A stretch of DNA of 48,382 bases, from assembly GCA_021852055.1 (NCBI GenBank), contig JAJZOD010000001.1, positions 1 through 48,382 of the forward strand, written 5' to 3'. Made by a program: the position numbers and the translations under genes. Positions 18,826-37,369 of the stretch are shown one piece after another; within the stretch, counting starts at the first letter, position 1; every line of letters starts with the position of its first letter. The notes below the pieces were generated by a model, which did no database searches, was not told the DNA's origin, and saw only the letters and a list, made by a program, of their open reading frames with translations. This stretch comes from Microcaldota archaeon (GTDB lineage Archaea; Micrarchaeota; Micrarchaeia; Micrarchaeales; CABMGC01).

Positions 18826-21207
18826 TCAAGGGATTATTTCGCGTAGGTTGTTGGTGTCTACGAGCACTATTGATCCCGATTCTATTGAAAGCCGCGTCAG
18901 TTCTGCAGCTTTTCCGTATGTTTTGTACAGCTTATCTACAAATGCAGATCTTGCCTCGCTATTAAGAAATACTATGAACGCCTTCCTGCCTGGAAGTATC
19001 TTCATCTTGCGAATTCCGGAGATAGATGAGAATATGAACAGCTGTGTTTGCTTGTCCTTTGCAGTGAATACCATGTCTGCTTCGTTGCTTTGGTCTAGAT
19101 CGGTGAAAATTGCTGCATGTTTCACGAGATAATCGCGCAACCTTCTGAATATTACCAGATACTCCACATCATGCTTCGAGGTTAATTCCCAACGCTTTGG
19201 CATGTAGTAGTCAGCAACTGATGATAGCTTGTTTGTCGAGACAAGCGTGTACAGTATCTCATTCATATTCTGCAAAGTTATTGATACAGGGGTGTTGTTT
19301 ACATGTATGACGGAACTTACCCCAAACTTCACTTCGTCAGGGGTAAGAGGCATGTACTTCCAGTAATGGCTGTAGTTTATAGCATCAAATAAGTTAACTA
19401 TCTGGTCTGATGTGACATTGACATTGTCCATCTTTACAGGCGGCGACTCCGGAAGGTCTATGTAATACTCATCGCGATTTGGAGCGCGCAGGAATATGTT
19501 CAATAAAAGTATTACAATGCCTGCTATGCCGAACTCTATGTAAAGTGACGGTATCGCAGGAGGGCTCTGATAATAGGCTGGTATTATGTACTCGCGGTTA
19601 AGGACGTGTATGCTTAGGTTGTGCAGACCGTAGCCTATAACAGCGCCATTTGGCAGTGTGTAGTTTATAACGCCATTGTGTATTGTTCCGGACTCATTGT
19701 ATGTGCCGTTTATTGTTGCTGCGTATGATACATTTGAAAGCTCTTGGCCGTCGCTTAAAACATTAAACAAGAATACATCTGTTTTAAAGTTTGATACTGT
19801 GAGCGTTATATTTAAATCGGGCACATAGAACAAGGCATAGCCGTAGTGTCTGCCAGTTATGTCTATGAGTGATGCAATGTAGTACTGGCCTGTTGGCAGA
19901 TTTCCGAACAAATAGTACTCGACAGTAGGCAGGGTTGTATTGAAAACGCCAAGTGGCAGGCCGTATGTGTACTCGAGGCTGCGATTCAGTACATCAATGC
20001 TAAAGGCCGTTTTTGATAGTATGGGATTTACTTTTATCTGCACAGGGGCCTTTATGCCGTAACCTATTACAGAAGGGAGGTCAAGAGTGCCGTTTGCATT
20101 GAAATTCGTCCTAAAAGGGAACTGCCTGTCGAGCCAGGTATCGGTGTTTGATGCATTAACGCTTATCAAAGAGTATGAATTATTTATTTCGGCAGGAGCC
20201 GATGGCGTATTGTTTATAATAAGATTTGTAGTAAGCATTGTTACATTTCCTTTAGTGTTTAGCGAGGGACCTGTTGGCAGATAGGAGTTGTTTATAGCAT
20301 AAGTGCCGTATGCTATAACACTCATCCAGAACCTCGATGCTATTATCTTTGATATGTCGTTTGCAGCGTAGTTTGTGCTGTTCCATATCAAAGAAGGATA
20401 ATTGCTCAGTGCTATGAATGTGCCGTTATATGAGTAGGCATATGACAGCGGTCCGTGCATTGTCCCATTGGAAAACTCAAAGGTTGGCTTCTTGAAATAT
20501 AAGGATGAGTTTGATGTTTTATAGTAAGGGACTGTGTTTAGGTTGGCAGTGGCGAGGGCAGCAAGCGTTGTATTTGGCATCGTATATACCTCGCTCGCCT
20601 GTACTGCATGCGAAAAGTTGTATCCTACGTATACTATGTAGTCGCCTCTGGCAAGAAGGGTTAGGATTGACGTATTTGGATAACCGGGAGGCGGTGCAAG
20701 GCCGGTATCTGGCATAAGGCTAGCCGGTATCAGACCAGTTGGCAGTATGATTACCGAATCATTAACTGTGGAATTTATGTCTCTGAGGTTTATGCCCTGA
20801 AAGCTTGATGAGTTACGCACAAGGCCATATTGGTTAAGGCGCGAATATAGACTCGAGTACAGGGAGGAGTAGTTTAGGCATTTGTAACATGAATAGGTCG
20901 AATTTACAAGATATATGCGAAATATTGGATTCTTACTGAACATGTCCAGGGTAAGATTGGCTGCAGTTGCGTTTGATAGCTGATAATTAAATTGGGCAAA
21001 CTGTACAAGGCCAGTAGCCTGCGAGTAAGTAGCTATGCCCCGGTTTATAACTGCGCCGTATACCGAGATATTGGAGTTTATTATTGGTGCTGCAGGTCTT
21101 ATGTTGTTAAGCGCGTTTGTGAGCACAACATATATTATAATTATAAAAGCCAAAACTACGACTATTAAGGCCGCACCGATTTTAATAATTTTTTTTTTAG
21201 AAGGCAT
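18826..21207 (-). CDS. Large surface-anchored membrane protein of the VirB-like locus, 793 residues
   Basis: I do not recognise a family. An N-terminal helix (about 6-32, IGAALIVVVLAFIIIIYVVL) is followed by about 520 residues rich in N-x-S/T sequons and beta-prone strands, which are probably extracytoplasmic. A second helix (about 555-580, LYIEFGIAGIVILLLNIFL) leads to a 200-residue cytoplasmic part (from RAPNRDEYYIDLPESPP) with an alpha/beta look and no Walker motif. A CxxC pair (YSCYKCLN) occurs near residue 105. It is the last gene of the leftward locus after the ATPase genes. The topology would let it link an outer receptor or adhesin to the cytoplasmic ATPase; this is inference. Confidence 0.6.
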   Translation of the reverse strand: MPSKKKIIKIGAALIVVVLAFIIIIYVVLTNALNNIRPAAPIINSNISVYGAVINRGIATYSQATGLVQFAQFNYQLSNATAANLTLDMFSKNPIFRIYLVNSTYSCYKCLNYSSLYSSLYSRLNQYGLVRNSSSFQGINLRDINSTVNDSVIILPTGLIPASLMPDTGLAPPPGYPNTSILTLLARGDYIVYVGYNFSHAVQASEVYTMPNTTLAALATANLNTVPYYKTSNSSLYFKKPTFEFSNGTMHGPLSYAYSYNGTFIALSNYPSLIWNSTNYAANDISKIIASRFWMSVIAYGTYAINNSYLPTGPSLNTKGNVTMLTTNLIINNTPSAPAEINNSYSLISVNASNTDTWLDRQFPFRTNFNANGTLDLPSVIGYGIKAPVQIKVNPILSKTAFSIDVLNRSLEYTYGLPLGVFNTTLPTVEYYLFGNLPTGQYYIASLIDITGRHYGYALFYVPDLNITLTVSNFKTDVFLFNVLSDGQELSNVSYAATINGTYNESGTIHNGVINYTLPNGAVIGYGLHNLSIHVLNREYIIPAYYQSPPAIPSLYIEFGIAGIVILLLNIFLRAPNRDEYYIDLPESPPVKMDNVNVTSDQIVNLFDAINYSHYWKYMPLTPDEVKFGVSSVIHVNNTPVSITLQNMNEILYTLVSTNKLSSVADYYMPKRWELTSKHDVEYLVIFRRLRDYLVKHAAIFTDLDQSNEADMVFTAKDKQTQLFIFSSISGIRKMKILPGRKAFIVFLNSEARSAFVDKLYKTYGKAAELTRLSIESGSIVLVDTNNLREIIP

Positions 21208-21377: not shown

Positions 21378-22085
21378 TCAGCCTCTTACCTCAAGGTATC
21401 CCATAGACACCATCTTATCCAGAATCTGCTCAACCCGCGGCGCTGTTATGTTGTAGGTTTTAGAGACTAGATCTATATCTATAGTGTTGTTATGGACCTC
21501 TATCCAGTCTTCTATTATCGACATTAAAGATTCATCCGAGTATTTCTGCAGCTTTTCTAGGCTGTCTTTAAGCGTTTTATTTTCGTTTTCTAGCTGTGAC
21601 GCCTGCAGTGTGAGGTTTCTGTTTGATGCCGACAACTCTATATTGAGCCTTTTGAGCGCCCTATACTCTTCAAGCATAGCATCGTACTTGTTGTATAATG
21701 AACTATAGCTCTGCGAGATCCCGGAGAGGAGCTTGTCTATTGTTGAATCAACATACTGCATGAGCTCTGACGTGTTTACAGTATAGTCTTCTGAAATCAT
21801 CGACAGCGCTGACGCTACATTTTTTAAAACAGACGCGCGGCGCAGCGATTCGCTTGTATCCGGAGGTATCGAGTATATTACCTCCAGGCCCGAAGCAGTG
21901 AAATTCATAAGATAAAAAAGGTATGGCATCTTATGTATGTTTCGGCTTTCAATAACACCGACAAAAAAAGAATCGTTTTCTATGCCTGTGGAGTAAAAAG
22001 GCACAGAGGCAAGCTTTGACTTCATCATATCGAAATTCGAGAGGAGCTTACCCTCGAGTTTCAGTTTTTCGACTTTTGGAGCCAT
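21378..22085 (-). CDS. Coiled-coil protein with C-terminal winged helix, VirB-like locus
   Basis: I chose the ATG at 22085 (MAPKVEKLKLEGK) because GGAGA lies seven bases upstream; a GTG at 22127 would add 14 residues. Residues 20-110 look like a small alpha/beta domain (FFVGVIES, YLFYLMNF). Residues 115-185 form a long coiled coil (LLSGISQSYSSLYNKYDAML and LQASQLENENKTLKDSLEKL). The last 50 residues form a winged-helix-like fold (VSKTYNITAPRVEQILDKMV, GYLEVRG). It may be an adaptor or a regulator of the secretion-like locus. Confidence 0.6.
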   Translation of the reverse strand: MAPKVEKLKLEGKLLSNFDMMKSKLASVPFYSTGIENDSFFVGVIESRNIHKMPYLFYLMNFTASGLEVIYSIPPDTSESLRRASVLKNVASALSMISEDYTVNTSELMQYVDSTIDKLLSGISQSYSSLYNKYDAMLEEYRALKRLNIELSASNRNLTLQASQLENENKTLKDSLEKLQKYSDESLMSIIEDWIEVHNNTIDIDLVSKTYNITAPRVEQILDKMVSMGYLEVRG

Positions 22086-22197
22086 TGAGTTGTCTCCGTT
22101 TTTGTTTTCTTCTGCCACAAGAACCACTTACAGATAAGATAAACAAATCTAATGTATATATGGCTTGCGTTTCAGCTGCATGCCACACCCGTACGCC

Positions 22198-22614
22198 TTA
22201 TTTCTTGTTATACACCATTGAGGCTTTGCTAGGTTTTGGATTTATTTTGAGTTCAGGCATATAATTGAGAAGGGAAAGCAGGTAAAGCAGTATAAGAACT
22301 CCGATGCCGAATGACAGAGCGTATAGGAACGAGTATATTGTTGGAGACGATGAGGAGCTTATAAGCAACAGCATTATGAGGAATATGACTCCCAGCGCTA
22401 CGTACATTGCCTGCCTTCTGACGTATCTCTTCCTGTATTTTTTGTATTTCTCATAGCACTCCTTGCACACGACTATTCTATTATTCTTGACAGAGTTAAA
22501 GACTTTTTTCTTTATGAACCTGATGCTGCGTATAACGTTGTCTTCCTTTATTTCTATGCCATCGCGCTCCTGCCCACACACTATGCAGTAGCTTTTTTGC
22601 TTTTCATGTTTCAT
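22198..22614 (-). CDS. Zinc-ribbon protein with two membrane helices
   Basis: The N-terminal 60 residues contain two CxxC pairs (YCIVCGQE and VVCKECYEK), a zinc ribbon. A very basic linker (KYKKYRKRYVRRQ) and two hydrophobic helices follow (YVALGVIFLIMLLLI and FGIGVLILLYLLSLL). The ribbon should face the cytoplasm by the positive-inside rule. Its ATG overlaps the upstream gene's stop (TAATG), tying it to the VirB4-like cluster. Family not recognised. Confidence 0.65.
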   Translation of the reverse strand: MKHEKQKSYCIVCGQERDGIEIKEDNVIRSIRFIKKKVFNSVKNNRIVVCKECYEKYKKYRKRYVRRQAMYVALGVIFLIMLLLISSSSSPTIYSFLYALSFGIGVLILLYLLSLLNYMPELKINPKPSKASMVYNKK

Positions 22615-22922
22615 TAGTCCACCAAATTAAGCTTAGATACCTTGCCATATGTCTCTTTTATCTTCTCCTCATCAAGCGTATTAAAGACCCTAGTTATGCT
22701 TGTATCACCAAAGCCTATCCTACGGAGTATGTTTGTTATGTCCTGCGGATTTATCCCGAGCTTCTCCAGCATACCGACAAATGCCACAGCATCAACATGC
22801 TTGTGCTCCTTGTCCAGCCTGCTTAGCATGACTTCTACACTGCCGTCGCTTATTCCAAGAGAAGTTATCATTTTTTTGAGGTCGATCTTGCTTACCACAA
22901 AACTGTTTTTCAATGAATTCAC
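22614..22922 (-). CDS. Stand-alone copy of the VirB4-like ATPase C-terminal domain
   Basis: This 102-residue protein aligns without gaps over 69 residues (15-83) with the last 69 residues of the adjacent ATPase (432-500). I count 17 identities by eye, including the shared ends RRIGFGDTSITRVF and RGMGLKDELVSRVF. The domain is all-helical with two internal half repeats (GI/GV starts). Start is GTG at 22922, with a TTG at 22913 after GGTGA as alternative. A solo repeat lies exactly at the junction with the ATPase gene, so the two may once have been one reading frame or a tandem domain pair. Confidence 0.65.
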   Translation of the reverse strand: MNSLKNSFVVSKIDLKKMITSLGISDGSVEVMLSRLDKEHKHVDAVAFVGMLEKLGINPQDITNILRRIGFGDTSITRVFNTLDEEKIKETYGKVSKLNLVD

Positions 22923-22950
22923 CCGGATTTCCCGCTATACACGGTTAAAC
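22921..22950. repeat. Solo IS200/IS605-like end (partial copy 3) at ATPase stop codon
   Basis: GGATTTCCC (from 22925) through ACGGTTAAAC (22950) matches the copy at 4650-4675 at 24 of 26 positions. The minus-strand TAA inside GGTTAAAC (22945-22947) is the ATPase stop codon. The left half of the hairpin present in other copies is missing. Confidence 0.5.
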
Positions 22951-24450
22951 GAAATTTTTGAAGACCCTTGAAACTAACTCATCCTTCAAGCCCATGCCCC
23001 TGAGGAGACTTATTACACTGTCGCGGCTTACACCTTCGCCCAGCAGTAGCTTGATGAATGTGATTATATCGATGTTGTTGCCTTGGTCGCCAAGCTTTGA
23101 GATAAATTTAAGCACCACATCGGAACCAATGCCGCTTTCTATGAGTTTGGAGCTCAGGCTCATTTTATCAAATGAATACTCCTTTTGTATGGTATTGTCC
23201 TCTATCTCGTCCTGGTTTAGTATTTTAGATATTGAGACAAGGTATGTATCAAGAGGCAGCTCGCCAACTATCTTGTCTATCATGAAGATGTTTGGGAACT
23301 GAACACCAGTGTTAAATGCCATGTCTACGGCTGCTTGACCGACACCTAACTTGCTTATCTCGCTGCGTATGAAATCGGAAAAGTTGAGCGAGCCCTGAAG
23401 ATAGTTCATGAATTTTTCAAATCGGATTCTTAACATGAACGTCGTGCCTGCATTTGAGAATATGGCCTCGTTTACGTCTGTAGGGTTCTGCGATGCGACT
23501 ATCAAGCCGAAGTGATACTTCCTGCCTTCCCTGATTATTGTGACTGCGTCGCTTCTCTCGTCGCTTGCAACTTTCCACGCCTCGTCCAGAACCACAAAGG
23601 TCTTTATGCCTGCAGATGCGGACCAGCCCTCCATGCGCATCTTTTCCTTGAGGGTCTGCAGTATGAACAGCGCTGCCATTGCCCTGAAACGCTCGTCCGG
23701 AAGGCTTGACAAATCGATGTCTATGAGCCCCGATGACGCCAGTTTGCCTATGTCTACTGTGCTCTTGTTTGCAAAATAGTCTTCGCCCTCTCTTGAGAAC
23801 TGCCTCAGCCGGTATATTGTATTCTCTAGTTCAGCAGGATATTCATAAGTGCCTTCCTGCAACTTCTCGTCAAGAAGCGAGGTTACATCTTTCAGTGTAG
23901 GAGGCTCCTTGTCAGGCGGAGGAGGAGAAGCAAGTATAAATCCTGCATTCACATAAGACTGCTCTATGGCCTCTTCAGTAAGTCTGCGCTGTTCTGGATA
24001 CTCGGCTATGTCGGTAAGTATATCAAGTGAATTCATTATCTGCTTTGTGCGGTCTATAGGCTTCATGCCTGACAAATCCATGAGATTCAGATAGTCCCCT
24101 TTTGAGAAGGATATAGTCTTGCCGCCGCTCTGCTTTACCCATGAAATGTATTCGCCTGCCCAGTCTATTATTATGGCGTTGGTGTTCCATACATAGCTTG
24201 CCCTTGTAAGAAAAGTTTTTACAAAGAAGCTCTTTCCGGCGCCTGTTATTCCAACTACTGACACATGTGGGTTTGTAAGCATGGAGAACGTCCAAGTGAA
24301 CGGCACCTTAAACACTTTTGTAGTGCCTATGAATATAGAATCTGTAGGATCGTTAAGCAAAAACTCGTGCGGCGGTTCTGGAGGCCTTGTGATGAACAGC
24401 CTTTTTGATATCTCATTGCTCATTGTAGTTTGAATGCGTACGAGTGTCAT
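22945..24450 (-). CDS. VirB4/HerA-type secretion ATPase
   Basis: A 501-residue FtsK-HerA-superfamily ATPase. IFIGTTKVFKVPFTW precedes Walker A GITGAGKS (67-74). Then come IIIDWAGEY (93-101), Walker B TFVVLDEAW (284-292) and the sensor-like VASQNPTDV (318-326). This layout is that of the C-terminal motor of VirB4/TraC and of archaeal CedB/TedB. The usual VirB4 N-terminal domain is missing here; similar domains appear on the two preceding genes. Residues about 430-501 are an extra helical domain repeated in the next gene. It should power assembly or transport by the VirB6-like proteins encoded upstream. Confidence 0.85.
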   Translation of the reverse strand: MTLVRIQTTMSNEISKRLFITRPPEPPHEFLLNDPTDSIFIGTTKVFKVPFTWTFSMLTNPHVSVVGITGAGKSFFVKTFLTRASYVWNTNAIIIDWAGEYISWVKQSGGKTISFSKGDYLNLMDLSGMKPIDRTKQIMNSLDILTDIAEYPEQRRLTEEAIEQSYVNAGFILASPPPPDKEPPTLKDVTSLLDEKLQEGTYEYPAELENTIYRLRQFSREGEDYFANKSTVDIGKLASSGLIDIDLSSLPDERFRAMAALFILQTLKEKMRMEGWSASAGIKTFVVLDEAWKVASDERSDAVTIIREGRKYHFGLIVASQNPTDVNEAIFSNAGTTFMLRIRFEKFMNYLQGSLNFSDFIRSEISKLGVGQAAVDMAFNTGVQFPNIFMIDKIVGELPLDTYLVSISKILNQDEIEDNTIQKEYSFDKMSLSSKLIESGIGSDVVLKFISKLGDQGNNIDIITFIKLLLGEGVSRDSVISLLRGMGLKDELVSRVFKNFV

Positions 24451-24576: not shown

Positions 24577-25401
24577 TCAGGACTGTGAGTCGAAAAGCTT
24601 CTGCATCAGTGCGCCTTCATACAGCACATAGTTCAGCTTGAACAGCGTATGTATCTCTCTGCCTGTGACCCGTGTGACACCTAAGTCAAGAGAACTGAAA
24701 AGCGTTTCTAGCCTTTCAAGCTGGTTTCTGAGTGCGTCTGCAGCTGCCTTATCGCTTACCCCGACTGCTGTTGTCTCCACGTACATTATGCTGTTGAGAG
24801 GCAGCTCACCTGTTGATATCCTGTCTATGCGTGCCTGAAGTATGTTCATCTTCCTTTGGATTGCCTGCATTGTCATCGAATTTGGAGCTTCCCTCTCCGA
24901 CTCCTTTGACATCTGGAACTCGAGGAAGCCGCGCCTGCCTTCAAGGTCTTCCCTATACTTCTGTATGTCCTTTGGATTTGAGATTATATTAAATTTGAAT
25001 GGAAAATCTGCATTGATTATTATGCGCTCCCATTTTTCAGGGGCGCCTGCAAGGGCCTGTTCGTCCTCGCCCATTATCGCCTCTTCGCGGAATACGTATT
25101 TGTATATGTTTGCCGTAAGATAGCCGGTGGCGTAGTACAAACCATTTACGTACTTCACAATCCTGTCCTGCTCTTTAGGGGCCATATTGCCCTTTGCAAG
25201 AGTTATGCTGATGCCAAGCAGTTTTGTAATTACAGGGAATATAAGAAAATCTGCGTAGTTCAGCACGAGTATTATGCCGACAGTAGCAAGCGATAGTATA
25301 ACCATTAAAAACCCGAATACGCCGAAGTTTGAAAGGCCTATGAGAAGCAAAAATACGGCGAGTATTGAGAAACCCAAGTACACTATAGATTCTTCATCCA
25401 T
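24577..25401 (-). CDS. Membrane protein with VirB4 N-terminal-like domain (1)
   Basis: Residues 5-65 hold two or three close hydrophobic helices (LGFSILAVFLLLIGLSNFG and GFLMVILSLATVGIILVLN). From about 75 the protein is soluble, with an alpha/beta segment IIINADFPFKFNIISNP, a helical stretch KMNILQARIDRISTGELPLN, SIMYVETTAVG, and LRNQLERLETLFSSLDLGVT. This order (strand, paired helices, 'x-Y-V-x-x-x-A', helix, 'L-G-V-x-x-x-x-L') resembles the N-terminal domain of VirB4/TraC, preceded by VirB3-like helices. The ATG at 25401 has GGTG upstream. It lies just before the ATPase gene and probably forms a bipartite VirB4 with it. Confidence 0.6.
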   Translation of the reverse strand: MDEESIVYLGFSILAVFLLLIGLSNFGVFGFLMVILSLATVGIILVLNYADFLIFPVITKLLGISITLAKGNMAPKEQDRIVKYVNGLYYATGYLTANIYKYVFREEAIMGEDEQALAGAPEKWERIIINADFPFKFNIISNPKDIQKYREDLEGRRGFLEFQMSKESEREAPNSMTMQAIQRKMNILQARIDRISTGELPLNSIMYVETTAVGVSDKAAADALRNQLERLETLFSSLDLGVTRVTGREIHTLFKLNYVLYEGALMQKLFDSQS

Positions 25402-25413
25402 AACAAAGCACCC

Positions 25414-26268
25414 TCATATGCCCTCTTCTACTGTCTTTTGGTGAATAAGCTCATTTACAGTTTCAACAGGTATCATGCGATCCGGCTCAATGAAATTAAG
25501 TATCTCTTCGCCATCGGCAACATAGGCGCTTATGCCCAGTATTGCACTTATTCCTGAGGCGACTTCCTCTGCATGCTGATATGCTATGCTTGATGCCTCT
25601 TCCTCATTGCCACCGTTTGCGCTGACCATTGCATAGGTTATGAGCGCCTCTGATTTAGATGCGCTTATGTTGTTAAGCAGATTATGCCACATTGTAACCT
25701 CTCCCTTGGCCCTGTCTGTTATCTGTGTGCCTGAACCTGCCTGCTGCAACACAGATCTGAGCTTTGATTCGGACTCGTCAAGCTTGTTCCTTATTTTTGC
25801 TATGTATTTGTCTTTGTTGACGATATAAAGCTGTGATGATATTTTGATGGTGCTCTTTGAAACGGTGAGGATCCTGCTGAATAGCCTTGCTATGTCCAAG
25901 CGCTCCTGATCAGACATCTCAGTCCCTGACTTGTATATTGGTATTGTTATAAATGACGAGGCATAAGTCCCATTTTCATCGCTTGTTATTATTGAGGTGC
26001 CTGAAGGCGAAAGGAGATATGGTTCAGCAGAACTGATGGCGATGTTTTTGTTTTTCATCCTCATTGCAGGTATGTACAGGTACATATAATATTTTGTAGA
26101 GAATGCAACTACTGCAAGTATAAGCGCCAACACCCCGAGCAGGAATGCTAAAAGCGAGTTTCCTACAGTATAAGTCAGCACTGCGCACACCATTGATGCT
26201 CCTGCAAATACTATAAACAGAAGCATCTGGGATTTAAGCGCCAACAAAACACCGATTATGAAATACAA
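25414..26268 (-). CDS. Membrane protein with VirB4 N-terminal-like domain (2)
   Basis: It has two helices (MLLFIVFAGASMVCAVLTYT and LLAFLLGVLALILAVVAF), then a soluble domain of about 210 residues. SSFITIPIYKSGTEMSDQER is followed by LFSRILTVSKSTIKISSQLY, a helical hairpin and LITYAMVSANGGNEEEASSI. It ends like VirB4 N-domains, with a small-residue helix and 'GEEILNFIEP'. It is a second, diverged partner of the gene at 24577-25401. The frame opens with TTG at 26268. A strong TATA at 26269-26281 makes a start at the TTG 26244 (after GGTG) or the ATG 26226 more likely. Confidence 0.55.
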   Translation of the reverse strand: MYFIIGVLLALKSQMLLFIVFAGASMVCAVLTYTVGNSLLAFLLGVLALILAVVAFSTKYYMYLYIPAMRMKNKNIAISSAEPYLLSPSGTSIITSDENGTYASSFITIPIYKSGTEMSDQERLDIARLFSRILTVSKSTIKISSQLYIVNKDKYIAKIRNKLDESESKLRSVLQQAGSGTQITDRAKGEVTMWHNLLNNISASKSEALITYAMVSANGGNEEEASSIAYQHAEEVASGISAILGISAYVADGEEILNFIEPDRMIPVETVNELIHQKTVEEGI

Positions 26269-26317: not shown

Positions 26318-27571
26318 TCATATTATCTTGAATTTGCCGGACATGCTTGTCATGTTACCCAGGAACTGGGCAATCTGTACTATCATTGCATAAGTAATTG
26401 CGAATATAAGGACAGGATAGAACAGCACCGACATCCAGTATGAGCCAAGCCCCTGCCTTAGAAGGTTAAGCTCCTGTGGCAGCGGAGACTGAGGGCTAAC
26501 AGCATTGAGCTGTGCTCCAGGGCCGTTGCCGTAAGATGCAAGAGCAGACGTTACCCCAAGCAGCTGCTGCGTCATTGATTGGTTTGTGAAGTAGTATGCG
26601 ACAGAGAACAATGTCGGCATTATTATGTATGTGCCTATTGCTATGGCTATCATCATGCCGCCTAGGCCGCGGAGCGGCAGAATTGAACGAAGTATAATTC
26701 CGGGTATCAGAAACACAGGTATAGCTGCATACATAAATATCATTATCATGTAAAACTCGCCGTATAGCAGTGCTATGGCATCGCTCTGCAGGCTTATGTA
26801 CGCCATTGCAGGTATGTAGAAGAATACGGTTATTGCAGGCTCGAGGTAATCTGCAATGTCATCGCTGCACCACTGTGTGCCGCTGACACTACCGATTTGC
26901 GCAGCTCCGGAGTATATCGGAAGTGAAGACGAGGCACCACTGGCGGCTGACTGCGATGCTATGCCTGAAGCTGCAATATTCGGAAGTTCAGGAGTTGGTG
27001 GCGCACCTATCTGTGCCGCACCTGTGCTTGCACCGCCGCTATTGAACCCGGTGCACACGGCAATGTGCGTAGTCATTAGCTGCTTATCAGCTACGGCTAT
27101 GTTGAACAGCTCCGTGAGCATGTTCTGCGTGCTGTTTATTGTATTGCTTACGTAATTCAGAGAGCTGACATAAGGGTTTGTGCCGATTATCAGAGAAGGA
27201 ATAAGGCCGACCATCACAGCAGTAAGGAATAGGAATCCTGCCACTATTATTGTAGTCGCTATTGCCTCGTAATACTCGCCTATTGCAAAATTGCGTATCT
27301 TGCCATTGTTCAGTATCTGAGCTGCGATGAACAGTATTGTTGCTAATGTGAATGAGAAGAGTATCGCAATTACAGCTATCGGTTCCCATGTACTCCACTG
27401 GCTTGCTATGGCCTGGTCTGCCTGAGTGCAGTACCACGGCGCAGCACCTTGGATTATGCCGGGATTTGCGCCGCCTACACAGTAGCTGTTGGTGCTGCTC
27501 GCAGACAGCATTCCGGAAGCTGCAACAAGCAGAAGGAATGCAGCGAGAGCAATAAACCTTTTTCTTAACAT
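26318..27571 (-). CDS. VirB6/TrbL-like polytopic membrane protein (6 of 6)
   Basis: A 417-residue protein with an N-terminal signal sequence (1-26). A helix pair flanks FAIGEYYEAIAT (about 64-128). A Cys-containing, Ala/Gly/Ser-rich extracellular loop of about 110 residues follows, then four helices. The shared family motif is PGIILRS (290-296) with RGLGG (301-305) and a Pro at 319, ending the 'IAIAIGTYIIMP' helix. The plan matches VirB6/TrbL/CedA-type inner-membrane channel proteins, although the sequence link is inferred. GGTG precedes the ATG. It is the last of six consecutive paralogues. Confidence 0.7.
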   Translation of the reverse strand: MLRKRFIALAAFLLLVAASGMLSASSTNSYCVGGANPGIIQGAAPWYCTQADQAIASQWSTWEPIAVIAILFSFTLATILFIAAQILNNGKIRNFAIGEYYEAIATTIIVAGFLFLTAVMVGLIPSLIIGTNPYVSSLNYVSNTINSTQNMLTELFNIAVADKQLMTTHIAVCTGFNSGGASTGAAQIGAPPTPELPNIAASGIASQSAASGASSSLPIYSGAAQIGSVSGTQWCSDDIADYLEPAITVFFYIPAMAYISLQSDAIALLYGEFYMIMIFMYAAIPVFLIPGIILRSILPLRGLGGMMIAIAIGTYIIMPTLFSVAYYFTNQSMTQQLLGVTSALASYGNGPGAQLNAVSPQSPLPQELNLLRQGLGSYWMSVLFYPVLIFAITYAMIVQIAQFLGNMTSMSGKFKII

Positions 27572-27581
27572 TGCTGCACCA

Positions 27582-28721
27582 CTATATCACATTTGTCAGA
27601 AGCGAGATGAAGCTCATCCGCTCCCCTATCGCTGAAGAGAAATCGGATATGAACGCATCCAGTATCATAAAATTGAGTATGTTTATGAAAGTTACGCCTA
27701 TAACTATTATGCCTATGTATACAAACAGCTGCTCTGTAAGAATTGTAGTGCCTAAGGTGTTGTTTGTCAGATAGCCCAGCAGGAAAGTCATGTCTGTAAT
27801 TACAGGGGACACCGCAGGGATTGCAAGGGCGCCATATGTAGCAGCAGGCGATACATGTTCAAGCGCATGGTCGAGAAAGCCGTAGTTCAGCCCGATAAGC
27901 ACTGGGTATATGAAGCCGATCCCAAGCCCGAATGCTATCATAGCCCCTCCGAAAGTCCTTGTAACCCCGAAAGCGCGCGCTATGAGCCCTATTGCCATGA
28001 AGAAAGCGAAAAGATATGGAGATGCTCCAAGGAGTATCAGCTGCAGCTGGTTTATCAGTTCAAACGTATACATGGCCGGTATTATGAAATTCTCGAACGT
28101 ATTCGCCTTTGCAAGAGGCGACAGTTCTACAGGCCCAAGATCTGCAGTTATTATAAGGCCTGCAGAGCCAAAGGGATTTATCTGCTGGCCGTAGGTTGAG
28201 CCGCTGAATGCAGCGGTGCCCGGAGTAAGTGGTAAACCTGCTATCAGGATGTTTGGCGCTATGGCGAATGTTACCAAAGTGTAGTAGATATAAAGATTAA
28301 ATGAATCGACATGCCCGTTGAACTGGTACATGTTGCACATGGCAAGCGAGTAGATGTTTTCAACAGGCATGGCACCTGACGCAGACGTGCACTGCGAGGA
28401 GATAAGCCCGGCGCTGTTGAATATGTTGACAGGGTTTTCTGTGCAGAGCGCAGTTGCTATGCTTCCGAATATTGCTATCAGGACTATAGAAAGAAGAAGC
28501 TCGTATATCTTCACTTTTACCCAGGGCCTTATCGAACTTATGCTGCCTATCAGCGGTGCAAGTGCGTATATCACGGAGAGTATGCTTATTATTGCAAGGA
28601 CAGCAAGGATTACAATAGGGAACCATGCAGTGTACGGAGCCGTAAGGAAGGAGCTTATGCTGCTTACGCAGCTGCTTATGATGAGCATGAAGCCTGTATA
28701 CAAAAGTGTTATGTCCATCAT
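27582..28721 (-). CDS. VirB6/TrbL-like polytopic membrane protein (5 of 6)
   Basis: A 379-residue protein with about seven helices and no cleavable signal. The early pair surrounds WVKVKIYELLLSIVLI (about 67-82). A loop with Cys93, Cys111 and Cys129 follows. The family motif is GLIARAFGVTRTFGG (245-259), then MIAFGLGIGFIYP with the conserved Pro at 273. Its start overlaps the preceding gene's stop by four bases (ATGA), indicating translational coupling with the neighbouring paralogue. It is separated from the next paralogue by 10 bp. Confidence 0.7.
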   Translation of the reverse strand: MMDITLLYTGFMLIISSCVSSISSFLTAPYTAWFPIVILAVLAIISILSVIYALAPLIGSISSIRPWVKVKIYELLLSIVLIAIFGSIATALCTENPVNIFNSAGLISSQCTSASGAMPVENIYSLAMCNMYQFNGHVDSFNLYIYYTLVTFAIAPNILIAGLPLTPGTAAFSGSTYGQQINPFGSAGLIITADLGPVELSPLAKANTFENFIIPAMYTFELINQLQLILLGASPYLFAFFMAIGLIARAFGVTRTFGGAMIAFGLGIGFIYPVLIGLNYGFLDHALEHVSPAATYGALAIPAVSPVITDMTFLLGYLTNNTLGTTILTEQLFVYIGIIVIGVTFINILNFMILDAFISDFSSAIGERMSFISLLTNVI

Positions 28722-29857
28722 AGTACAGCCTGCATTATCCTGCCTGCATTGAGCGAAGGCGCGCCAAGCACCCTTGCCAGCACTGAAACAAGATCAAATG
28801 ATATCAGAAATGCTATAAACACGCCTATTAAAAGCATTACAAAATAGGATACCTCTAGCGCGTATAGAGATGAATTTGATTCTAGAGGGCTGAATATCTG
28901 CGAGATTCCGGTATCAGACTGGTATATTGGCAGTATAGTACTCTGGAAGTATGAGATTATATCTGTATTCTGCTGTATACTTGGCAGCGAAGAGGCTGCA
29001 CCGGTATTTATTGAGGAGAGAGCTGATGGCGCGGCTTCTATGGGATACAACAGTGCAGGGAAAACTATATAGAAGGATATAAACAGCGCTAGGAATGTGC
29101 CTCCTGCAGCTCTTGTCCATGGCAGCGCACGGAAGAGTATACCGAGGTAAAGGAATACAGGAAACAGGAAGTAGATGGCAAAGAACAAAAATATCAAGGT
29201 TATGCTTATTGCAAGCATTAGTATGGATGCTGACTTCTCAAGGCCTATTATGTTGCTTATAAAGCCGATGCCCTGCAGCGGCGATATCATAAAGCTTGGG
29301 ATCACAGAGGCGATAGTGCCGCTTATGAACACATGTATCTCTGTACCGGACAAGAATGTGTATACCATGTTAAGCAGCGTAAAAGACACAAACGCCTTTC
29401 CTGCAGGTATTATCTGATTATTGAATATGTTTGTGCATAAACTTGTGTACAGCGACTGCATGCCTATTGGACCCTGCACCTGCGCGCTTGACGTAGATGT
29501 TGCAACGCCGGTGAAGAAGTTTGTTACTCCATTAAGGGAGGCCATGCCCGACCATATAAGCATTATAAGCAGTATGTTGAATACTGACTCCATGTACTCC
29601 GACTTGACAAATGTTACCAGTTTGCTTATGCCGAATCCTGCGCCTATGCCGTACAGAAGGGCAAGGACAAGCAGTACAGCAAACACTATCAGAAGCGATA
29701 CAGACAGAAGGCTGTAAAATGTTGTAGCACTGTATATCGAACTGCTGACTACACTGTTGGTGTTCCCGAATATGTCATTGCAGTAGGCTGCGCCTGCAGC
29801 GCTTGCGCTTGCTATAGAGACAAGAAGCAGAGCCAATACAATAAATCTTGCTTTCAT
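28718..29857 (-). CDS. VirB6/TrbL-like polytopic membrane protein (4 of 6)
   Basis: A 379-residue protein with signal sequence 1-22 (FIVLALLLVSIASASAA). The early helix pair surrounds FVKSEYMESVFNILL (about 83-97). A central loop contains Cys141, and a further hydrophobic segment lies near 180-205. The family motif is LGILFRALPWTRAAGG (238-253), followed by a helix that ends at Pro267. A loop of about 60 residues and a final helix near 335-360 close the protein. It overlaps the next paralogue by four bases and follows the previous one after 7 bp. Confidence 0.7.
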   Translation of the reverse strand: MKARFIVLALLLVSIASASAAGAAYCNDIFGNTNSVVSSSIYSATTFYSLLSVSLLIVFAVLLVLALLYGIGAGFGISKLVTFVKSEYMESVFNILLIMLIWSGMASLNGVTNFFTGVATSTSSAQVQGPIGMQSLYTSLCTNIFNNQIIPAGKAFVSFTLLNMVYTFLSGTEIHVFISGTIASVIPSFMISPLQGIGFISNIIGLEKSASILMLAISITLIFLFFAIYFLFPVFLYLGILFRALPWTRAAGGTFLALFISFYIVFPALLYPIEAAPSALSSINTGAASSLPSIQQNTDIISYFQSTILPIYQSDTGISQIFSPLESNSSLYALEVSYFVMLLIGVFIAFLISFDLVSVLARVLGAPSLNAGRIMQAVL

Positions 29858-29864
29858 AAAGACA

Positions 29865-31430
29865 CTACACCAGACGCTCTATGCCGAACAACCTCGTATC
29901 TCCGCCGAGAAGCGAGGATATGCTAAATAGTGCGGCAAGGACTAAAAGCGCATTAATCAGAGGGAATATCAGCCCTATGATGGACATAAGGCCATACAGG
30001 TTGTATAAGGAGAATGTAGTATTTATTGCATTGTAGCTGTTGCAGGTAAAACCAAGGTGCAGAAGCTGCGATGAGACTGAAGGCCCGCTTGTAGCTGTTT
30101 GCCCGGTGTTGGTAAATAGGTTAAGAGCGCCGTTTAGAAGCCCCAGAAGAGGAGTGCCGTATGCGCCTATGACCTGAAGTTCTCCTGTTATAAGGTTGCC
30201 TCCTGCAGGCCAGCAGCCATCATGATAGATTATGTAATCTGCGCGCGGGAATACAAAGAAATTCAATTTTTCATCGTAGTTTATAGTGTATGAAGATGGC
30301 TGTGATACAAGGGATGCGAGAGCAGATGAAAGGCTTGCCGGAGGCGGTTGCGAGCCTATGAGCTGCAATGTTGGAAGAGAGGTTGCGCCTATGGGCTGGC
30401 TTCCTACAGTGTTAAGCGAGTTGTACTGCATCAGGAATATTGCAGGATACACAAGTAGGCCAACAACAGCTATAGCTATCAGCAGGCCGCCGACCTTGCG
30501 CGTAAGGAATGAGGCGCGCAGTATTATTCCAGCAGCGAGTATGTACGGCCATGAATGCAGAAGCACTATTATTATCATCAGTTGCAATATAAACAAATAG
30601 AACATCAGCGTCGACTGCTGCGTAAGCAGGTTTGCCGAATCGAGGAGTATGTCGTATCCGGCAAATGGCTGGAAGGTATACTTTACTTCTAAAGCACCAT
30701 AGCCTGCCGGCGTGCTGCCGGATACTGAACCGGCCAGATTGCCCAGTAGACCGGTGCCGCCCGTTGCAACGCTGAGGCCAACACATGTAAGCGCAGGCCA
30801 GCACATGGAGTCTGTTGAGTTGAAGGTAGAGAGGAAACTCATATAGCCGCGGTAGATATAGTAGCCGTTCAGGTTTGTGGCTGTCTGGTTTGTAAGGTTT
30901 GCCAGTACAAGATATGTAGAGGCAAGGCCGTAATCAAGGTTGGCAGTTGCCTGCTGCTGGTTCGGATTATTGCCGCCATTGCCTGCGCTTGGTATGAGAT
31001 TGGTGCATATCTGATTAGTTGGGGTCTGCTGTAGTCCATTTATAAAGTTAAGATTCGCACCATTCAGGGTAGTGCAAAGATTATTGGCATTGGAACGCGA
31101 CATTAGGAGTGACGGATAAAAGCCGCTTCCGAATAATTCGAACACAGCTATAAGAATTACAACGACCAAAGCTGTGCCTATGGCATTTTCAAATTCTGAT
31201 AACGCAGCCGACTTTATTGTGCGGTTGTTAAGTAGCGTACCTATTATATAGTACACCATCACTATACCTACACTTGCGATTATGGCGAGAACAACTATTG
31301 GCAGCCATTCAGTAAATGCCGATATGCTTGTTGTTATGCTCGGAGGCGTTGTCGCAGCGTATGCAGTGAACGAAGTAAGCACAGTAGCAAAGACGATTGA
31401 AAGCATTAATTTTGACAACTTAATATGCAT
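29865..31430 (-). CDS. VirB6/TrbL-like polytopic membrane protein (3 of 6), largest
   Basis: The largest paralogue at 521 residues. A signal sequence (1-26) is followed by the early helix pair around ALSEFENAIGTALVV (about 76-90). A 150-residue extracellular loop rich in Asn, Thr and Gly with four Cys (119, 142, 210, 216) comes next. The family motif is GIILRASFLTRKVGG (301-315), then LLIAIAVVGLLVYP. A further 130-residue loop with Cys precedes the final hydrophobic segments. Size variation between the paralogues lies almost entirely in the extracytoplasmic loops. Confidence 0.7.
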   Translation of the reverse strand: MHIKLSKLMLSIVFATVLTSFTAYAATTPPSITTSISAFTEWLPIVVLAIIASVGIVMVYYIIGTLLNNRTIKSAALSEFENAIGTALVVVILIAVFELFGSGFYPSLLMSRSNANNLCTTLNGANLNFINGLQQTPTNQICTNLIPSAGNGGNNPNQQQATANLDYGLASTYLVLANLTNQTATNLNGYYIYRGYMSFLSTFNSTDSMCWPALTCVGLSVATGGTGLLGNLAGSVSGSTPAGYGALEVKYTFQPFAGYDILLDSANLLTQQSTLMFYLFILQLMIIIVLLHSWPYILAAGIILRASFLTRKVGGLLIAIAVVGLLVYPAIFLMQYNSLNTVGSQPIGATSLPTLQLIGSQPPPASLSSALASLVSQPSSYTINYDEKLNFFVFPRADYIIYHDGCWPAGGNLITGELQVIGAYGTPLLGLLNGALNLFTNTGQTATSGPSVSSQLLHLGFTCNSYNAINTTFSLYNLYGLMSIIGLIFPLINALLVLAALFSISSLLGGDTRLFGIERLV

Positions 31431-31431
31431 C

Positions 31432-32658
31432 TCAACTACCCCAGAACGGCCCGCTGTTTCCCATTATGGATGGTATTGCATTAAGCCCTTTATAAAGACC
31501 CTGCGCAAACCCCATTGTTATTGCGAAATCTATTGCTATCAGCACTATACCCTCAAATACGTACTGTGCAACTTCTGCAGTCATGTTATTAACCTGATTG
31601 GGAAGCAGGATAAGACCTTCGATAAGATTCATTATATAACTCCCATAGCCTCCGCTGCCTGATGCAGTAGTGGCAAGGTAAAAGCTTACTGGAAGCGTGA
31701 GCGGCACTCCTCCGGCATTACCAAAATTTGCAGTCTGAGGCGTCAGAAGGTATGCAAGGGGTATGTTGCCAAGGTCGTAGCTGCCCAGGTATGTAGTGTA
31801 GGGGTTGCATGATGTTGTGCCGTTGGCGCAGTAAAGCCAGTTCATTATTCCCTGATTCACTGATATAGTGAGCGGAAATACAAAAAACAGCGCTACGCCA
31901 AGTGCTATCAATGCATTTGACGCCTCGCGGAGCTTAGGCCCTGCAAATGATATAGAGCGCATCAGTATGGCAACTGGAACCAGCAGATTCAGTGCAAGCG
32001 CGCTTATAAGGGGCAAGAGGAAGTATAGTATAAACAAGGCTCCGAACGTCACTACTATGAAGCCGGAATATACAACGTAAGTGTTAGAATACGAGGAGTA
32101 AACATTTGATATGCGCCCCGTATAGTTTATTATGACATAATTGGAAAGGAACTGCACGGATTTGATTGGTATCTTGCTGAGGATGCCGCTGCCTGTAATT
32201 TTGCCTACGCTTGAGGACAAGCTAAAAAATATATTGTTCGAGAACGCAGAATCTATCGAAAGTATCATGCCTTGCGCTATAAGCTGGGTTGTTATGCTTG
32301 TGCCTTTTACAAACAGCAATGAGGTTATGTAATAGCTGTCTGACTGGAAGATGTTTTGATAATCGCCGCTTGGAAGGCCCGAAAGCGCAGCGCCTGCACC
32401 GCATGCCGCATATGCCATTGATACAAGTGAGGCTATAAGCACTATACTGAAGAATCCCTCGGTATACTCTATCCTTACTGCACCTTTAAGCCTGTCACGC
32501 ATAGGATTAGGCAAAAGGCCTGAGAGTGAGTATATGATTGCGCCTACGCTCAGCGTGGCTAGCACTATCAGCGCATCGACGCCTATCCAGTTGTTTATGT
32601 TGATTGTAGCTAAAGTACAGGAATTCTGTGCACTAAGCAAAAACGCAGGCAGGTACAT
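31432..32658 (-). CDS. VirB6/TrbL-like polytopic membrane protein (2 of 6)
   Basis: I use the ATG at 32658 (MYLPAFLLSAQNS), which overlaps the previous stop as TGATG; a TTG one codon earlier is possible. The early pair surrounds AVRIEYTEGFFSIVLI (about 60-76). The family motif is diverged: PVAILMRSISFAGPKLREAS occurs where others end in R-x-x-GG, so the double glycine is lost, but the following helix LIALGVALFFVFP keeps the Pro. This loss marks it as the most divergent channel-like subunit. It has about seven helices and ends with a C-terminal GPFWGS. Confidence 0.68.
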   Translation of the reverse strand: MYLPAFLLSAQNSCTLATININNWIGVDALIVLATLSVGAIIYSLSGLLPNPMRDRLKGAVRIEYTEGFFSIVLIASLVSMAYAACGAGAALSGLPSGDYQNIFQSDSYYITSLLFVKGTSITTQLIAQGMILSIDSAFSNNIFFSLSSSVGKITGSGILSKIPIKSVQFLSNYVIINYTGRISNVYSSYSNTYVVYSGFIVVTFGALFILYFLLPLISALALNLLVPVAILMRSISFAGPKLREASNALIALGVALFFVFPLTISVNQGIMNWLYCANGTTSCNPYTTYLGSYDLGNIPLAYLLTPQTANFGNAGGVPLTLPVSFYLATTASGSGGYGSYIMNLIEGLILLPNQVNNMTAEVAQYVFEGIVLIAIDFAITMGFAQGLYKGLNAIPSIMGNSGPFWGS

Positions 32659-33911
32659 CAAATCAACTTCAATCTTCTGCCGAAGGAGAGGCGTATAGTG
32701 CCTCCCAGCAGCCTTGCTATATTGTCAGTTATAGAGTATGCAAGAATAATGTCTATAATAAACAGGAACCAGAACTGGAAAATTAGGAAAAGATTATAAA
32801 AAAGTATATAGTTGAGCGCTGGATATGCCGAGTATACGGAAGACATAGCAACTCCGATTACGCTTATGGCGCCGCCCCCCGGATTGCTTACAGTGCCTGA
32901 TAGAAAAGACATGCCCACAACTGCAGAACACACTGTAGATACAAGACCTAGCCCGCTGCATGGATTTGAAGAGCCAGATAGCTGCGTTGCGAAAACAGAC
33001 GTGAAGTAGTTTGACAGTGGAGCATTGAAAAGCACCAGTATTGAGGGCCAGATTATACCAAGACCTATGCCCAAGGCTATGAGCGTGCCGCCTATGCCCC
33101 TTACAAGAGGCACGGCCCTGAATATAAGGCCGATTGGCACAAGAAGCATGAGGCCTACTGCAATAAACAGAGGGAGCAGGTACAGCTGCGAGGTGTAAGT
33201 GGTAAGCATTGGAATCTCTACGAAATTTACCACATCATTGAACATTGACGAGTATTGAGGCGACCCGAGACCGAGGACATCATTGCTAAAAGGCGTGAAT
33301 CCCACTCCGGATTTGAATACAGGAAGCAGTGCAATCACAATCGCAGACACAGGCGTTGATGCCAGGCCAAGCAGGTACTTCTCAGGAGGTATTGATATTC
33401 CCGGCCAGATTATCTTAAGGCTGTGAAGGGCACCGTAAGCTATCTGAAGATCAAGCATGCTGCTCATGCTGTTTGTGAGCTGGGAGTTGACGCTGCAGAG
33501 ATAGACCTCTGATTGGTATGTAAGCTGGGATACATTGGCTGAATAGTTACCAGTGGGTGACCCTGTGAGTGTAAGCGCTATGCCGCTGAGTATTGCAAGA
33601 ACCGAGAATATTACAACTACCAGAATGAATGATTTGATTATCTCTTTGTACTCATTCTCAAGCCAGCGCCCTAGATTTATCCCCGGAAGCAGTTTTGAGA
33701 TTATGTAAATTATGCCTATAATAATGAGGGATACAAGCAGCGCAAGAACCGAGAGGTCTATTGCAGTGCTAGTTACGTTTGTATTGCTTACTCCGGCACC
33801 TATGCCATTGCCGAGTACAGCGCTTGTTGGACAAGGCGTCAGGCCTGAATAGGCAAGGCTGAGAAATAGCAGTGAAAACAGCAACGAAGCCCTAACAGCG
33901 CTCCCTCTCAT
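32658..33911 (-). CDS. VirB6/TrbL-like polytopic membrane protein (1 of 6)
   Basis: A 417-residue protein with signal sequence 1-22. The early pair is well conserved (SLIIIGIIYIISKLLP, then WLENEYKEIIKSFILV at about 83-98). It resembles CedA/TrbL-like proteins in having an acidic/aromatic motif between the first helices. The family motif is GLIFRAVPLVRGIGG (261-275), followed by TLIALGIGLGIIWP. Later helices near 330-400 end in the basic tail LSFGRRLKLI. It is the first of six tandem paralogues and follows the basic single-helix protein gene by 68 bp. Confidence 0.7.
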   Translation of the reverse strand: MRGSAVRASLLFSLLFLSLAYSGLTPCPTSAVLGNGIGAGVSNTNVTSTAIDLSVLALLVSLIIIGIIYIISKLLPGINLGRWLENEYKEIIKSFILVVVIFSVLAILSGIALTLTGSPTGNYSANVSQLTYQSEVYLCSVNSQLTNSMSSMLDLQIAYGALHSLKIIWPGISIPPEKYLLGLASTPVSAIVIALLPVFKSGVGFTPFSNDVLGLGSPQYSSMFNDVVNFVEIPMLTTYTSQLYLLPLFIAVGLMLLVPIGLIFRAVPLVRGIGGTLIALGIGLGIIWPSILVLFNAPLSNYFTSVFATQLSGSSNPCSGLGLVSTVCSAVVGMSFLSGTVSNPGGGAISVIGVAMSSVYSAYPALNYILFYNLFLIFQFWFLFIIDIILAYSITDNIARLLGGTIRLSFGRRLKLI

Positions 33912-36159: not shown

Positions 36160-36801
36160 TCACTGCAGGGCTTTCAGAGACTGCATATTCTTTACTTCAG
36201 TGACCTTCTTAAGCGCAGAATATGTTGCTATTGCAACATTGTAAACATTCCTTGTCCTTCCGCGTGAATATGTCCATACGTCTTTTACTCCTGCAAGCTC
36301 AAGCACAGAACGCATAGTTTCTGCAGCGACTATGCCTACGCCCCTAGGCGCTGGCTTTAATGTTACAAGAGAGCTGCCGCACTTTGCAGTTTCTGTGAGA
36401 GGCAGCGTATGTTGTGTTCCGCAGTTGCATTCCCAGGAGCCGCAGCCAAGCCGTATCGATATTATATTCTTCTTGGCATCGCGTATTGCTGTTTCTATTG
36501 CAGGCTTAACTTCGACATCCTTGCCTACACCTATGCCAACGTGCCCGTTTCTGTCGCCTACAACCACAGTTACCCTGAATTTCTGGCGCCTGTTGTTCTT
36601 AGTCATTCTCTGGACTGATGCTATTTCAAGCACCTTGTCTTCTAATTTTGGTATAAGGGCGTCAACTATGCCTACTTCTTTTATTATCTTGCCGCTTGCA
36701 AATATCTCTTCAATATTTTTAATGTCGCCCCTTTTGACCTGAACGCCAACTTTTGTTTTAGGCGTCCATGTGCTCTCGTCAGTATATTCATCTAAATCCA
36801 A
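36160..36801 (-). CDS. rpsE: Ribosomal protein uS5
   Basis: 213 residues. The double-stranded RNA-binding N-domain is marked by RMTKNNRRQKFRVTVVVGDR and GHVGIGVGKDVEVKPAI. The C-domain has APRGVGIVAAETMRSVLELA and GVKDVWTYSRGRTRN. A four-Cys-containing insert (GCGSWECNCG) is normal for archaeal uS5. It is the last gene of the ribosomal cluster; uL30, uL15 and secY, which usually follow in archaea, are not here. Confidence 0.95.
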   Translation of the reverse strand: MDLDEYTDESTWTPKTKVGVQVKRGDIKNIEEIFASGKIIKEVGIVDALIPKLEDKVLEIASVQRMTKNNRRQKFRVTVVVGDRNGHVGIGVGKDVEVKPAIETAIRDAKKNIISIRLGCGSWECNCGTQHTLPLTETAKCGSSLVTLKPAPRGVGIVAAETMRSVLELAGVKDVWTYSRGRTRNVYNVAIATYSALKKVTEVKNMQSLKALQ

Positions 36802-36805
36802 TGCA

Positions 36806-37369
36806 TCACTCCTTCAATATCTTTTCCTTGACATCATTCAAAAGCGTATTTAACGACGCTGGTTCGAACCCGCCTTTCAGATAGCCTCCGAACTGCTTTA
36901 AGTATGTGGCTTCATTCTCCTTTTTAAGTTTTTGGGCATACTCGCTTGTAAGGCCGAAGACTTTTTCATCCACCTCTATACCAGACCTTAGTTTTAAGCC
37001 GCCGTCAGTACAGCCCTTTGCAAACATGAAAGGTATAGAGTTTTTCACAGGTGAGCTCAGCCCTATGTCAAGGATGTACTCACTTTTGTTGCCAGCTGTT
37101 TTTGATAAAGTTTTTGCAAGAAGTATGCCTACAAGATACGCAGTTGCGCGGTTGCTGCGTGGAGGCCACTTGTATGCTGCAAGTGCTGAAGAGTCCAGGT
37201 ACTTGATTACCCTGTCGCCTTTTTCCTCGTAGTGAACAACCTCGGCTATTATGCGCCTGTTTGTCTTCCTTATCACTATGCGGTCAAGGCTGCTTTTTAC
37301 AAGAGCCAACCTGTGCTTGTAATTTGTAAGTGCAGTGCGCCTTCGTTTAAAACCTATTTTTACTGCCAT
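36806..37369 (-). CDS. rplR: Ribosomal protein uL18
   Basis: 187 residues starting MAVKIGFKRRRTALTNYKHR, with LALVKSSLDRIVIRKTNRRI and the core YKWPPRSNRATAYLVGILLA typical of archaeal uL18. It binds 5S rRNA. The gene starts immediately after the eL19 stop with no gap and is followed by uS5 after 4 bp. Confidence 0.94.
   Translation of the reverse strand: MAVKIGFKRRRTALTNYKHRLALVKSSLDRIVIRKTNRRIIAEVVHYEEKGDRVIKYLDSSALAAYKWPPRSNRATAYLVGILLAKTLSKTAGNKSEYILDIGLSSPVKNSIPFMFAKGCTDGGLKLRSGIEVDEKVFGLTSEYAQKLKKENEATYLKQFGGYLKGGFEPASLNTLLNDVKEKILKE

What the first reader, a model, noticed from the sequence alone, without database searches (positions are those of the whole stretch)
24577..26268. Possible split VirB4: two membrane proteins carrying VirB4 N-terminal-like domains
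The ATPase at 22945-24450 starts only about 65 residues before its P-loop, so it lacks the VirB4 N-terminal domain. The two preceding genes each have two membrane helices followed by about 200 residues whose strand/helix order resembles a VirB4/TraC N-domain. A VirB3-VirB4-N fusion separated from its motor, and in duplicate, would be a new architecture and could give a two-flavoured hexamer.
Basis: inference. Interest (0 to 1): 0.75.

Follow-up and report, generated by a model that had tools for sequence, protein, structure and literature searches.

The report
Split VirB4 motor in Micrarchaeota
In tiny archaea (Micrarchaeota), the ATPase that should power a type IV secretion-like machine lacks its front half, and two neighbouring membrane proteins appear to carry that missing half instead, so one familiar protein has been taken apart into separate genes and one piece then duplicated.

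Summary
The ATPase (22945-24450) has a VirB4-type motor (Walker A at about residue 67, Walker B DEAW), an in-frame stop five codons upstream and no N-domain; complete homologues across Micrarchaeota look the same. N1 (24577-25401) and N2 (25414-26268) each have a two-helix membrane hairpin plus about 200 soluble residues and are paralogues. AlphaFold models of both have R388 VirB4/TrwK as best solved match, over the same TrwK region (220-385). A family profile independently aligns with the first N-domain of ordinary fused VirB4s of the same phylum (score 51.4; highest of 101 scrambled or reversed controls 24.8). Two ordinary Micrarchaeota VirB4s are naturally split into [PrgI-like hairpin + N-domain] and [motor]. 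So N1/N2 are best read as membrane-anchored VirB4 N-domain subunits of a bare motor. The VirB3 part rests on topology only. Duplication is lineage-specific (most families have one N) and arose more than once. Close precedents exist: TrsD (Gram-positive plasmids, Patescibacteria) and CedB/CedD (Sulfolobales). I rate it a new variant of a known kind: a motor with no N-domain left, one or two anchored N-subunits, six VirB6/CedA-like paralogues. Hetero-oligomer and cargo are untested.

The parts
24577..25401 (-). N1: two-helix membrane hairpin + VirB4 N-domain-like soluble part (about residues 69-274)
   Evidence: AF2 model; Foldseek best hit TrwK/VirB4; VIA Z 10.6 over 155 residues to 8rtd_g 221-385; CedB model 150-221 match, weak
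25414..26268 (-). N2: paralogue of N1, same architecture (true start probably about 26244-26247)
   Evidence: hhalign to N1 E 2.7e-11; AF2 model; Foldseek best hits TrwK/VirB4; VIA Z 10.1 to 8rtd_O 220-378
22945..24450 (-). VirB4-type motor ATPase without any N-domain, with an extra C-terminal helical tail
   Evidence: Pfam, closest plasmid relatives include VirB4/TraC ATPases, DEAW Walker B, in-frame stop just upstream
22614..22922 (-). small helical protein, paralogue of the ATPase C-terminal tail
   Evidence: match to ATPase residues 414-498, conserved position
26318..33911 (-). six paralogous polytopic membrane proteins (26318-27571, 27582-28721, 28718-29857, 29865-31430, 31432-32661, 32658-33911), VirB6/CedA-like by position and a short shared motif
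   Evidence: mutual matches and fixed order; weak local profile match to VirB6-like proteins upstream of fused VirB4s
22198..22614 (-). zinc-ribbon protein with two membrane helices, conserved in the cluster
21378..22127 (-). coiled-coil protein, conserved in the cluster
18826..21207 (-). 793-aa protein with N-terminal and internal membrane helices and a large probably external region, conserved in the cluster

Best explanation
N1 and N2 are membrane-anchored VirB4 N-domain subunits encoded apart from their motor. The ATPase is a VirB4 motor domain stripped of its N-domains. The three proteins would reassemble at the cytoplasmic membrane: the hairpins anchor the N-domains (the role VirB3 and the VirB4 N-domain share in R388), the N-domains sit on the ATPase ring, and the ring is coupled to the VirB6/CedA-like membrane proteins of the same operon to move a substrate or to build a VirB2-like filament. 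Shown here: separate genes, predicted-fold and profile similarity to VirB4 N-domains, homology of N1 with N2, conserved gene neighbourhood, natural split of ordinary VirB4s at a comparable point. Inferred: physical association, membrane topology, function of the hairpin as VirB3, and transport itself.
For: Structure: both independently modelled proteins (pLDDT 78.7 and 84.1) have TrwK/VirB4 as first Foldseek hit (prob 0.99 and 0.90), and VIA gives Z 10.6 and 10.1 to TrwK 220-385, the next unrelated rows being 8.2-8.3. That TrwK stretch lies mostly in Pfam's VirB4 N-domain (PF03135, 178-382). Sequence: profile of 96 N proteins vs N-terminal parts of 12 VirB4-type proteins of the same phylum: prob 86.9, score 51.4, N columns 144-296 on 137-276, the first N-domain just behind the PrgI-like hairpin; reversed control 24.8, 100 column-shuffled controls at most 24.1; five unrelated families of the operon at most 25.0, a sixth (21 columns on a membrane helix) 32.5. 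NCBIfam CedB model: N1 falls on 150-221 and the ATPase on 251-536, colinear (weak, E 0.02; 10 of 77 members, best 0.005). Context: the ATPase lacks an N-domain in all complete homologues and an N gene lies directly upstream in 73 of 80 loci and in most of 20 class-level genomes. Rosetta case: in L204 and L205 an ordinary VirB4 is split into [PrgI-like + N-domain 1] of 358/314 aa and [N-domain 2 + motor] of 798/806 aa, directly behind a polytopic VirB6-like gene, the same order as membrane protein-N-motor in the second cluster.
Against: Foldseek E-values are 0.04-0.1, not significant alone. The structure points to TrwK's second N-domain, the profile to the first N-domain of monoderm-type VirB4 (N vs NTD2 only 0.8%), so which N-domain this is stays open. 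The profile match is lost when only N1, only N2 or only the class-level rows are used. No sequence match of the hairpin to PrgI/VirB3 and none to TrsD alone. A few genomes keep N and motor apart (G048, G035; second copies in G073/G074).
Confidence: 0.8

Rival explanations
1. N1/N2 share the VirB4 N-domain fold by chance of a common alpha/beta arrangement and are unrelated membrane scaffold proteins of the machine (for example VirB8-like or adaptor proteins).
For: Foldseek E-values are weak; middling Z values are common for such models (notes); no significant hit in Pfam or the PDB sequences.
Against: Two separate models and an independent profile comparison converge on VirB4 N-domains, and the motor next door lacks exactly that domain.
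Confidence: 0.12
2. The ATPase is a HerA/DUF87-type DNA translocase that never had a VirB4 N-domain; N1/N2 are its private membrane adaptors.
For: Best Pfam hit is DUF87 and most PDB hits are HerA-like; in the motor tree the A and B lineages stand apart from fused VirB4s on long branches.
Against: Walker B DEAW as in VirB4 rather than a HerA-type motif (motif knowledge is my own); plasmid relatives include VirB4/TraC; profile match to a clostridial VirB4 motor 96.8%; VirB6-like and pilin-like neighbours.
Confidence: 0.12
3. N2 and N1 stand for the two different N-domains (NTD1 and NTD2) of ordinary VirB4, each on its own hairpin, so that the pair restores one full N-terminal half.
For: Gene order N2-N1-motor copies the order NTD1-NTD2-motor; in Sulfolobales CedB and CedD are reported to cover different parts of the VirB4 N-domain (PMC11868833).
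Against: Both models match the same TrwK region; most Micrarchaeota families have one N only; the tree shows N1, N2 and single N as one family with later, repeated duplication.
Confidence: 0.1

Closest known systems
Ced system of Sulfolobales, CedB and CedD (PMC11868833)
   Same: Membrane-anchored VirB4 N-domain-like regions, two complementary proteins, VirB6-like (CedA/CedE) and VirB2-like (CedA1) partners; the authors propose that CedB and CedD form a hexamer of dimers like VirB4.
   Different: CedB and CedD each keep their own ATPase domain; here the N-proteins have none and share one bare motor.
TrsC/TrsD/TrsE of pSK41/pGO1 and TrsD of Patescibacteria (PMC12102498)
   Same: VirB4 N-terminal homology encoded as a separate gene (TrsD) directly before the VirB4 gene.
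   Different: TrsD (227 aa) is preceded by a separate small membrane protein (TrsC), and TrsE still carries the second N-domain (Walker A at 266; hhalign 97.8% to NTD2); here hairpin and N-domain are one chain and the motor has no N-domain.
R388 VirB4/TrwK with VirB3/TrwM (PMC9259494; 7o41, 8rtd)
   Same: Predicted fold of the N-domain; membrane anchoring by a two-helix element; R388 has two non-equivalent VirB4 positions (central and outside), only the central one bound to VirB3.
   Different: One polypeptide with N-domains and motor, separate VirB3.
Fused PrgI-VirB4 proteins of Micrarchaeota (L197-L203, L206-L208) and the split forms L204, L205
   Same: PrgI-like hairpin followed by an N-domain; in L204/L205 these form a separate protein before the motor.
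   Different: The motor chain keeps a second N-domain; the motor lineage is distinct.

Membership tests
VirB4 (type IV secretion ATPase) | RecA-like motor with Walker A/B of the VirB4/TraG type | tested here: met
   Pfam AAA_10, P-loop_TraG, DUF87; DEAW; VirB4/TraC among nearest in plasmids
VirB4 (type IV secretion ATPase) | N-terminal domain(s) in the same chain as the motor | tested here: not met
   motor starts about 65 residues before Walker A, in-frame stop upstream; same in relatives
VirB4 N-domain (N1, N2) | VirB4 N-domain fold | tested here: met
   Foldseek and VIA best hits are TrwK for both models; significance moderate, predicted models only
VirB4 N-domain (N1, N2) | sequence-profile relation to VirB4 N-domains | tested here: met
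   score 51.4 against at most 24.8 in 101 controls; only with the broad family profile
VirB3/PrgI | two-helix hairpin next to VirB4 | tested here: met
   two hydrophobic segments at the N-terminus of N1, N2 and most N proteins of the second cluster
VirB3/PrgI | sequence-profile relation to PrgI/VirB3 | tested here: inconclusive
   hhalign N vs PrgI-like hairpin 3.9%; short membrane helices carry little signal
TrsD | sequence relation to TrsD | tested here: inconclusive
   a single TrsD sequence gave no match; even fused VirB4 NTD1 matched it only at 27.6%
CedB | membership by NCBIfam equivalog cut-off (700 bits) | tested here: not met
   all matches at most 50.1 bits
HerA | N-terminal HAS-barrel-type domain in front of the motor | tested here: not met
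   no N-terminal domain at all; the motor tree is not decisive
type IV secretion system | transport of DNA or protein, or pilus formation | not testable with these tools
   needs experiment

The most novel reading that the evidence does not exclude
N1 and N2 are non-equivalent N-domain subunits that sit on one common motor, so that the two VirB4 positions seen in R388 (central, bound to VirB3, and outside) are here specified by two genes, and six different VirB6-like proteins replace the homomeric VirB6 ring: a VirB4/VirB6 machine in which symmetric homo-oligomers have become fixed hetero-oligomers.
Probability: 0.3. Interest if true: 0.8.

Novelty: new variant of a known kind. Interest (0 to 1): 0.58.

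Why it matters
It suggests that VirB4, the signature protein of type IV secretion, can be dismantled to a bare motor with its membrane-anchored N-domain in separate genes, and that this machine belongs to the conserved chromosomal core of most genomes of a whole archaeal phylum, where standard annotation sees only an ATPase and unknown membrane proteins. [quoted passage not shown] It also gives a candidate machine for Micrarchaeota-host contact or DNA exchange.

Tried and rejected
Pfam, NCBIfam and PDB sequence searches with N1/N2: nothing significant. Direct comparison of N profiles with single TrsD, TrsE and clostridial VirB4 sequences: no signal. Direct HMM search of fused VirB4 N-terminal regions with N profiles: nothing significant. 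Frameshift or misassembly as cause of the split: rejected, since the gene boundary recurs in scores of genomes from many metagenomes. Mobile-element origin of the window cluster: no relative of N1 in viral contigs, only noise in plasmids; the cluster abuts the ribosomal protein operon. N duplication as a general feature: rejected, most families have one N. Motor-domain tree to settle VirB4 against HerA: long branches, not decisive. VirB6 identity of the six membrane proteins: only a 28-column local match (score 33.5), left as a lead.

Full report
What is there. The window is a contig of a Micrarchaeota genome (G000:C9; phylum from the record titles of relatives). On the minus strand lies a block of thirteen genes: six polytopic membrane proteins (33911 down to 26318), N2 (25414-26268), N1 (24577-25401), an ATPase (22945-24450), a 102-aa helical protein, a zinc-ribbon membrane protein, a coiled-coil protein and a 793-aa membrane-anchored protein. 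On the far side of the membrane genes lies a ribosomal protein operon (36160-41968; identified by reading the translations).

The ATPase. Its motor belongs to the VirB4/TraG/DUF87 group. Plasmid relatives by tblastn with the N-terminal 161 residues of a relative's ATPase include VirB4-like and TraC ATPases; profile comparison with a clostridial VirB4 gives 96.8%. The Walker B is VVLDEAWK. There is no room for an N-domain: the Walker A begins near residue 67 and a TAG stop lies five codons upstream of the ATG. All 60 relatives searched have a match to the ATPase, and complete ones begin at the same residue; class-level relatives have open frames of about 480-540 aa.

N1 and N2. Each has a two-helix hairpin and a soluble part. 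They are homologous (E 2.7e-11) and both are homologous to the single N protein of a second, smaller cluster found in the same genomes. In the window's own genome that second cluster reads: 128-aa pilin-like protein, membrane protein of the six-paralogue family, N (256 aa), motor (373 aa) (pilin by looks only, Pfam T4SS_pilin E 0.88).

Fold. AF2 models used 77 sequences each. N1: first Foldseek hits in the PDB are three TrwK/VirB4 chains (prob 0.98-0.99, E about 0.1); VIA-align Z 10.6, 155 residues, rmsd 3.1 A, model 70-274 on TrwK 221-385. N2: first two Foldseek hits TrwK; VIA Z 10.1, 152 residues, rmsd 6.3, model 81-266 on TrwK 220-378. Unrelated chains follow at 8.2-8.3 in both lists. E-values alone would not carry the claim; that two models of proteins about 20% identical pick the same stretch of the same protein adds weight. 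TrwK 178-382 is Pfam's VirB4 N-domain CagE_TrbE_VirB.

Profile evidence. Micrarchaeota also carry ordinary VirB4s of 884-1138 aa: PrgI-like hairpin, N-domain 1, N-domain 2, motor. A broad N profile (96 sequences) aligns with their first N-domain at score 51.4, prob 86.9. One hundred column-shuffled versions and the reversed alignment reached at most 24.8; the other families of the operon stayed at or below 32.5. Against N-domain 2 the probability is 0.8%. The CedB model of NCBIfam gives a weak but colinear picture: N1 on 150-221, ATPase on 251-536.

A natural parallel. In L204 and L205, from two families, an ordinary VirB4 is itself split: one gene with PrgI-like hairpin plus N-domain 1 (358 and 314 aa as first-start ORFs), the next with N-domain 2 plus motor (798 and 806 aa), behind a VirB6-like polytopic gene. 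The gene order VirB6-like, [hairpin + N-domain], motor is the order of the second cluster.

Distribution and history. An N1 profile finds matches in 254 of 301 genomes of the phylum (88 of 96 good ones). In 80 named loci N2-N1 is always present and the motor follows in 73, typically 5-60 bases on. Exceptions exist (G035, G048, second copies in G073 and G074). Most other families have one N and none of the six large membrane genes detectable next to it; f15 shares the full arrangement; f6 and f21 have two N. In the tree the two N of the f6 genome are sisters (SH-aLRT 99), apart from the f1/f2/f15 pair, so duplication happened more than once; N2 of f1/f2 sits on a long branch and its exact origin is unsure.

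Mechanism proposed. In R388 six protomers each contain one VirB3 and two VirB4; VirB3 wraps the N-domain of the central VirB4 only (PMC9259494). By analogy, N proteins supply both the membrane hairpin and the N-domain to a bare motor ring. Where N is doubled, the two may occupy different positions. For Sulfolobales it was proposed that CedB and CedD together make up a full VirB4 N-domain and a hexamer of dimers (PMC11868833). These steps are inference.

Novelty. Separately coded VirB4-N (TrsD) is published for Gram-positive plasmids and Patescibacteria (PMC12102498), and the two-protein N-domain for CedB/CedD. What I did not find described in the papers searched is a VirB4 motor without any N-domain served by hairpin-N proteins, or this system in Micrarchaeota; the paper library is incomplete. 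Hence new variant of a known kind.

Limits. No co-fold was possible; the VirB3 role of the hairpin is topology only; NTD1 or NTD2 is open; cargo is unknown.

Noticed in passing
window 26318-33911: Six paralogous polytopic membrane proteins in fixed order in families f1, f2 and f15, where the second cluster has one; they share a motif like LLPxGIxLRxxPxTRxxGG. Could be a fixed hetero-oligomeric VirB6/CedA-like channel.
   Followed up: partly
window 22614-22922: Stand-alone small protein that repeats the C-terminal tail of the ATPase (residues 414-498); kept next to the motor in many but not all families.
   Followed up: partly
L204:1295-4544, L205:1033-4378: Ordinary Micrarchaeota VirB4 split into [PrgI + N-domain 1] and [N-domain 2 + motor] in two families.
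   Followed up: yes
L197-L201, L208 (G073): One Micrarchaeota genome carries six fused PrgI-VirB4 proteins of about 1020-1140 aa, perhaps several conjugative elements.
   Followed up: no
L066:9876-13176: Second minimal cluster in the window's own genome: pilin-like 128 aa, membrane protein, N (256 aa), shorter motor (373 aa).
   Followed up: partly
L220:6822-8050: Three consecutive small VirB2/TrbC-pilin-like proteins (PF18895, PF04956; only one above the Pfam cut-off) directly upstream of the single N in a one-N family.
   Followed up: partly
window 18826-21207: 793-aa protein with an N-terminal and an internal membrane helix and a large Asn/Ser/Thr-rich, probably external region, conserved at the end of the block; candidate surface contact protein.
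   Followed up: no
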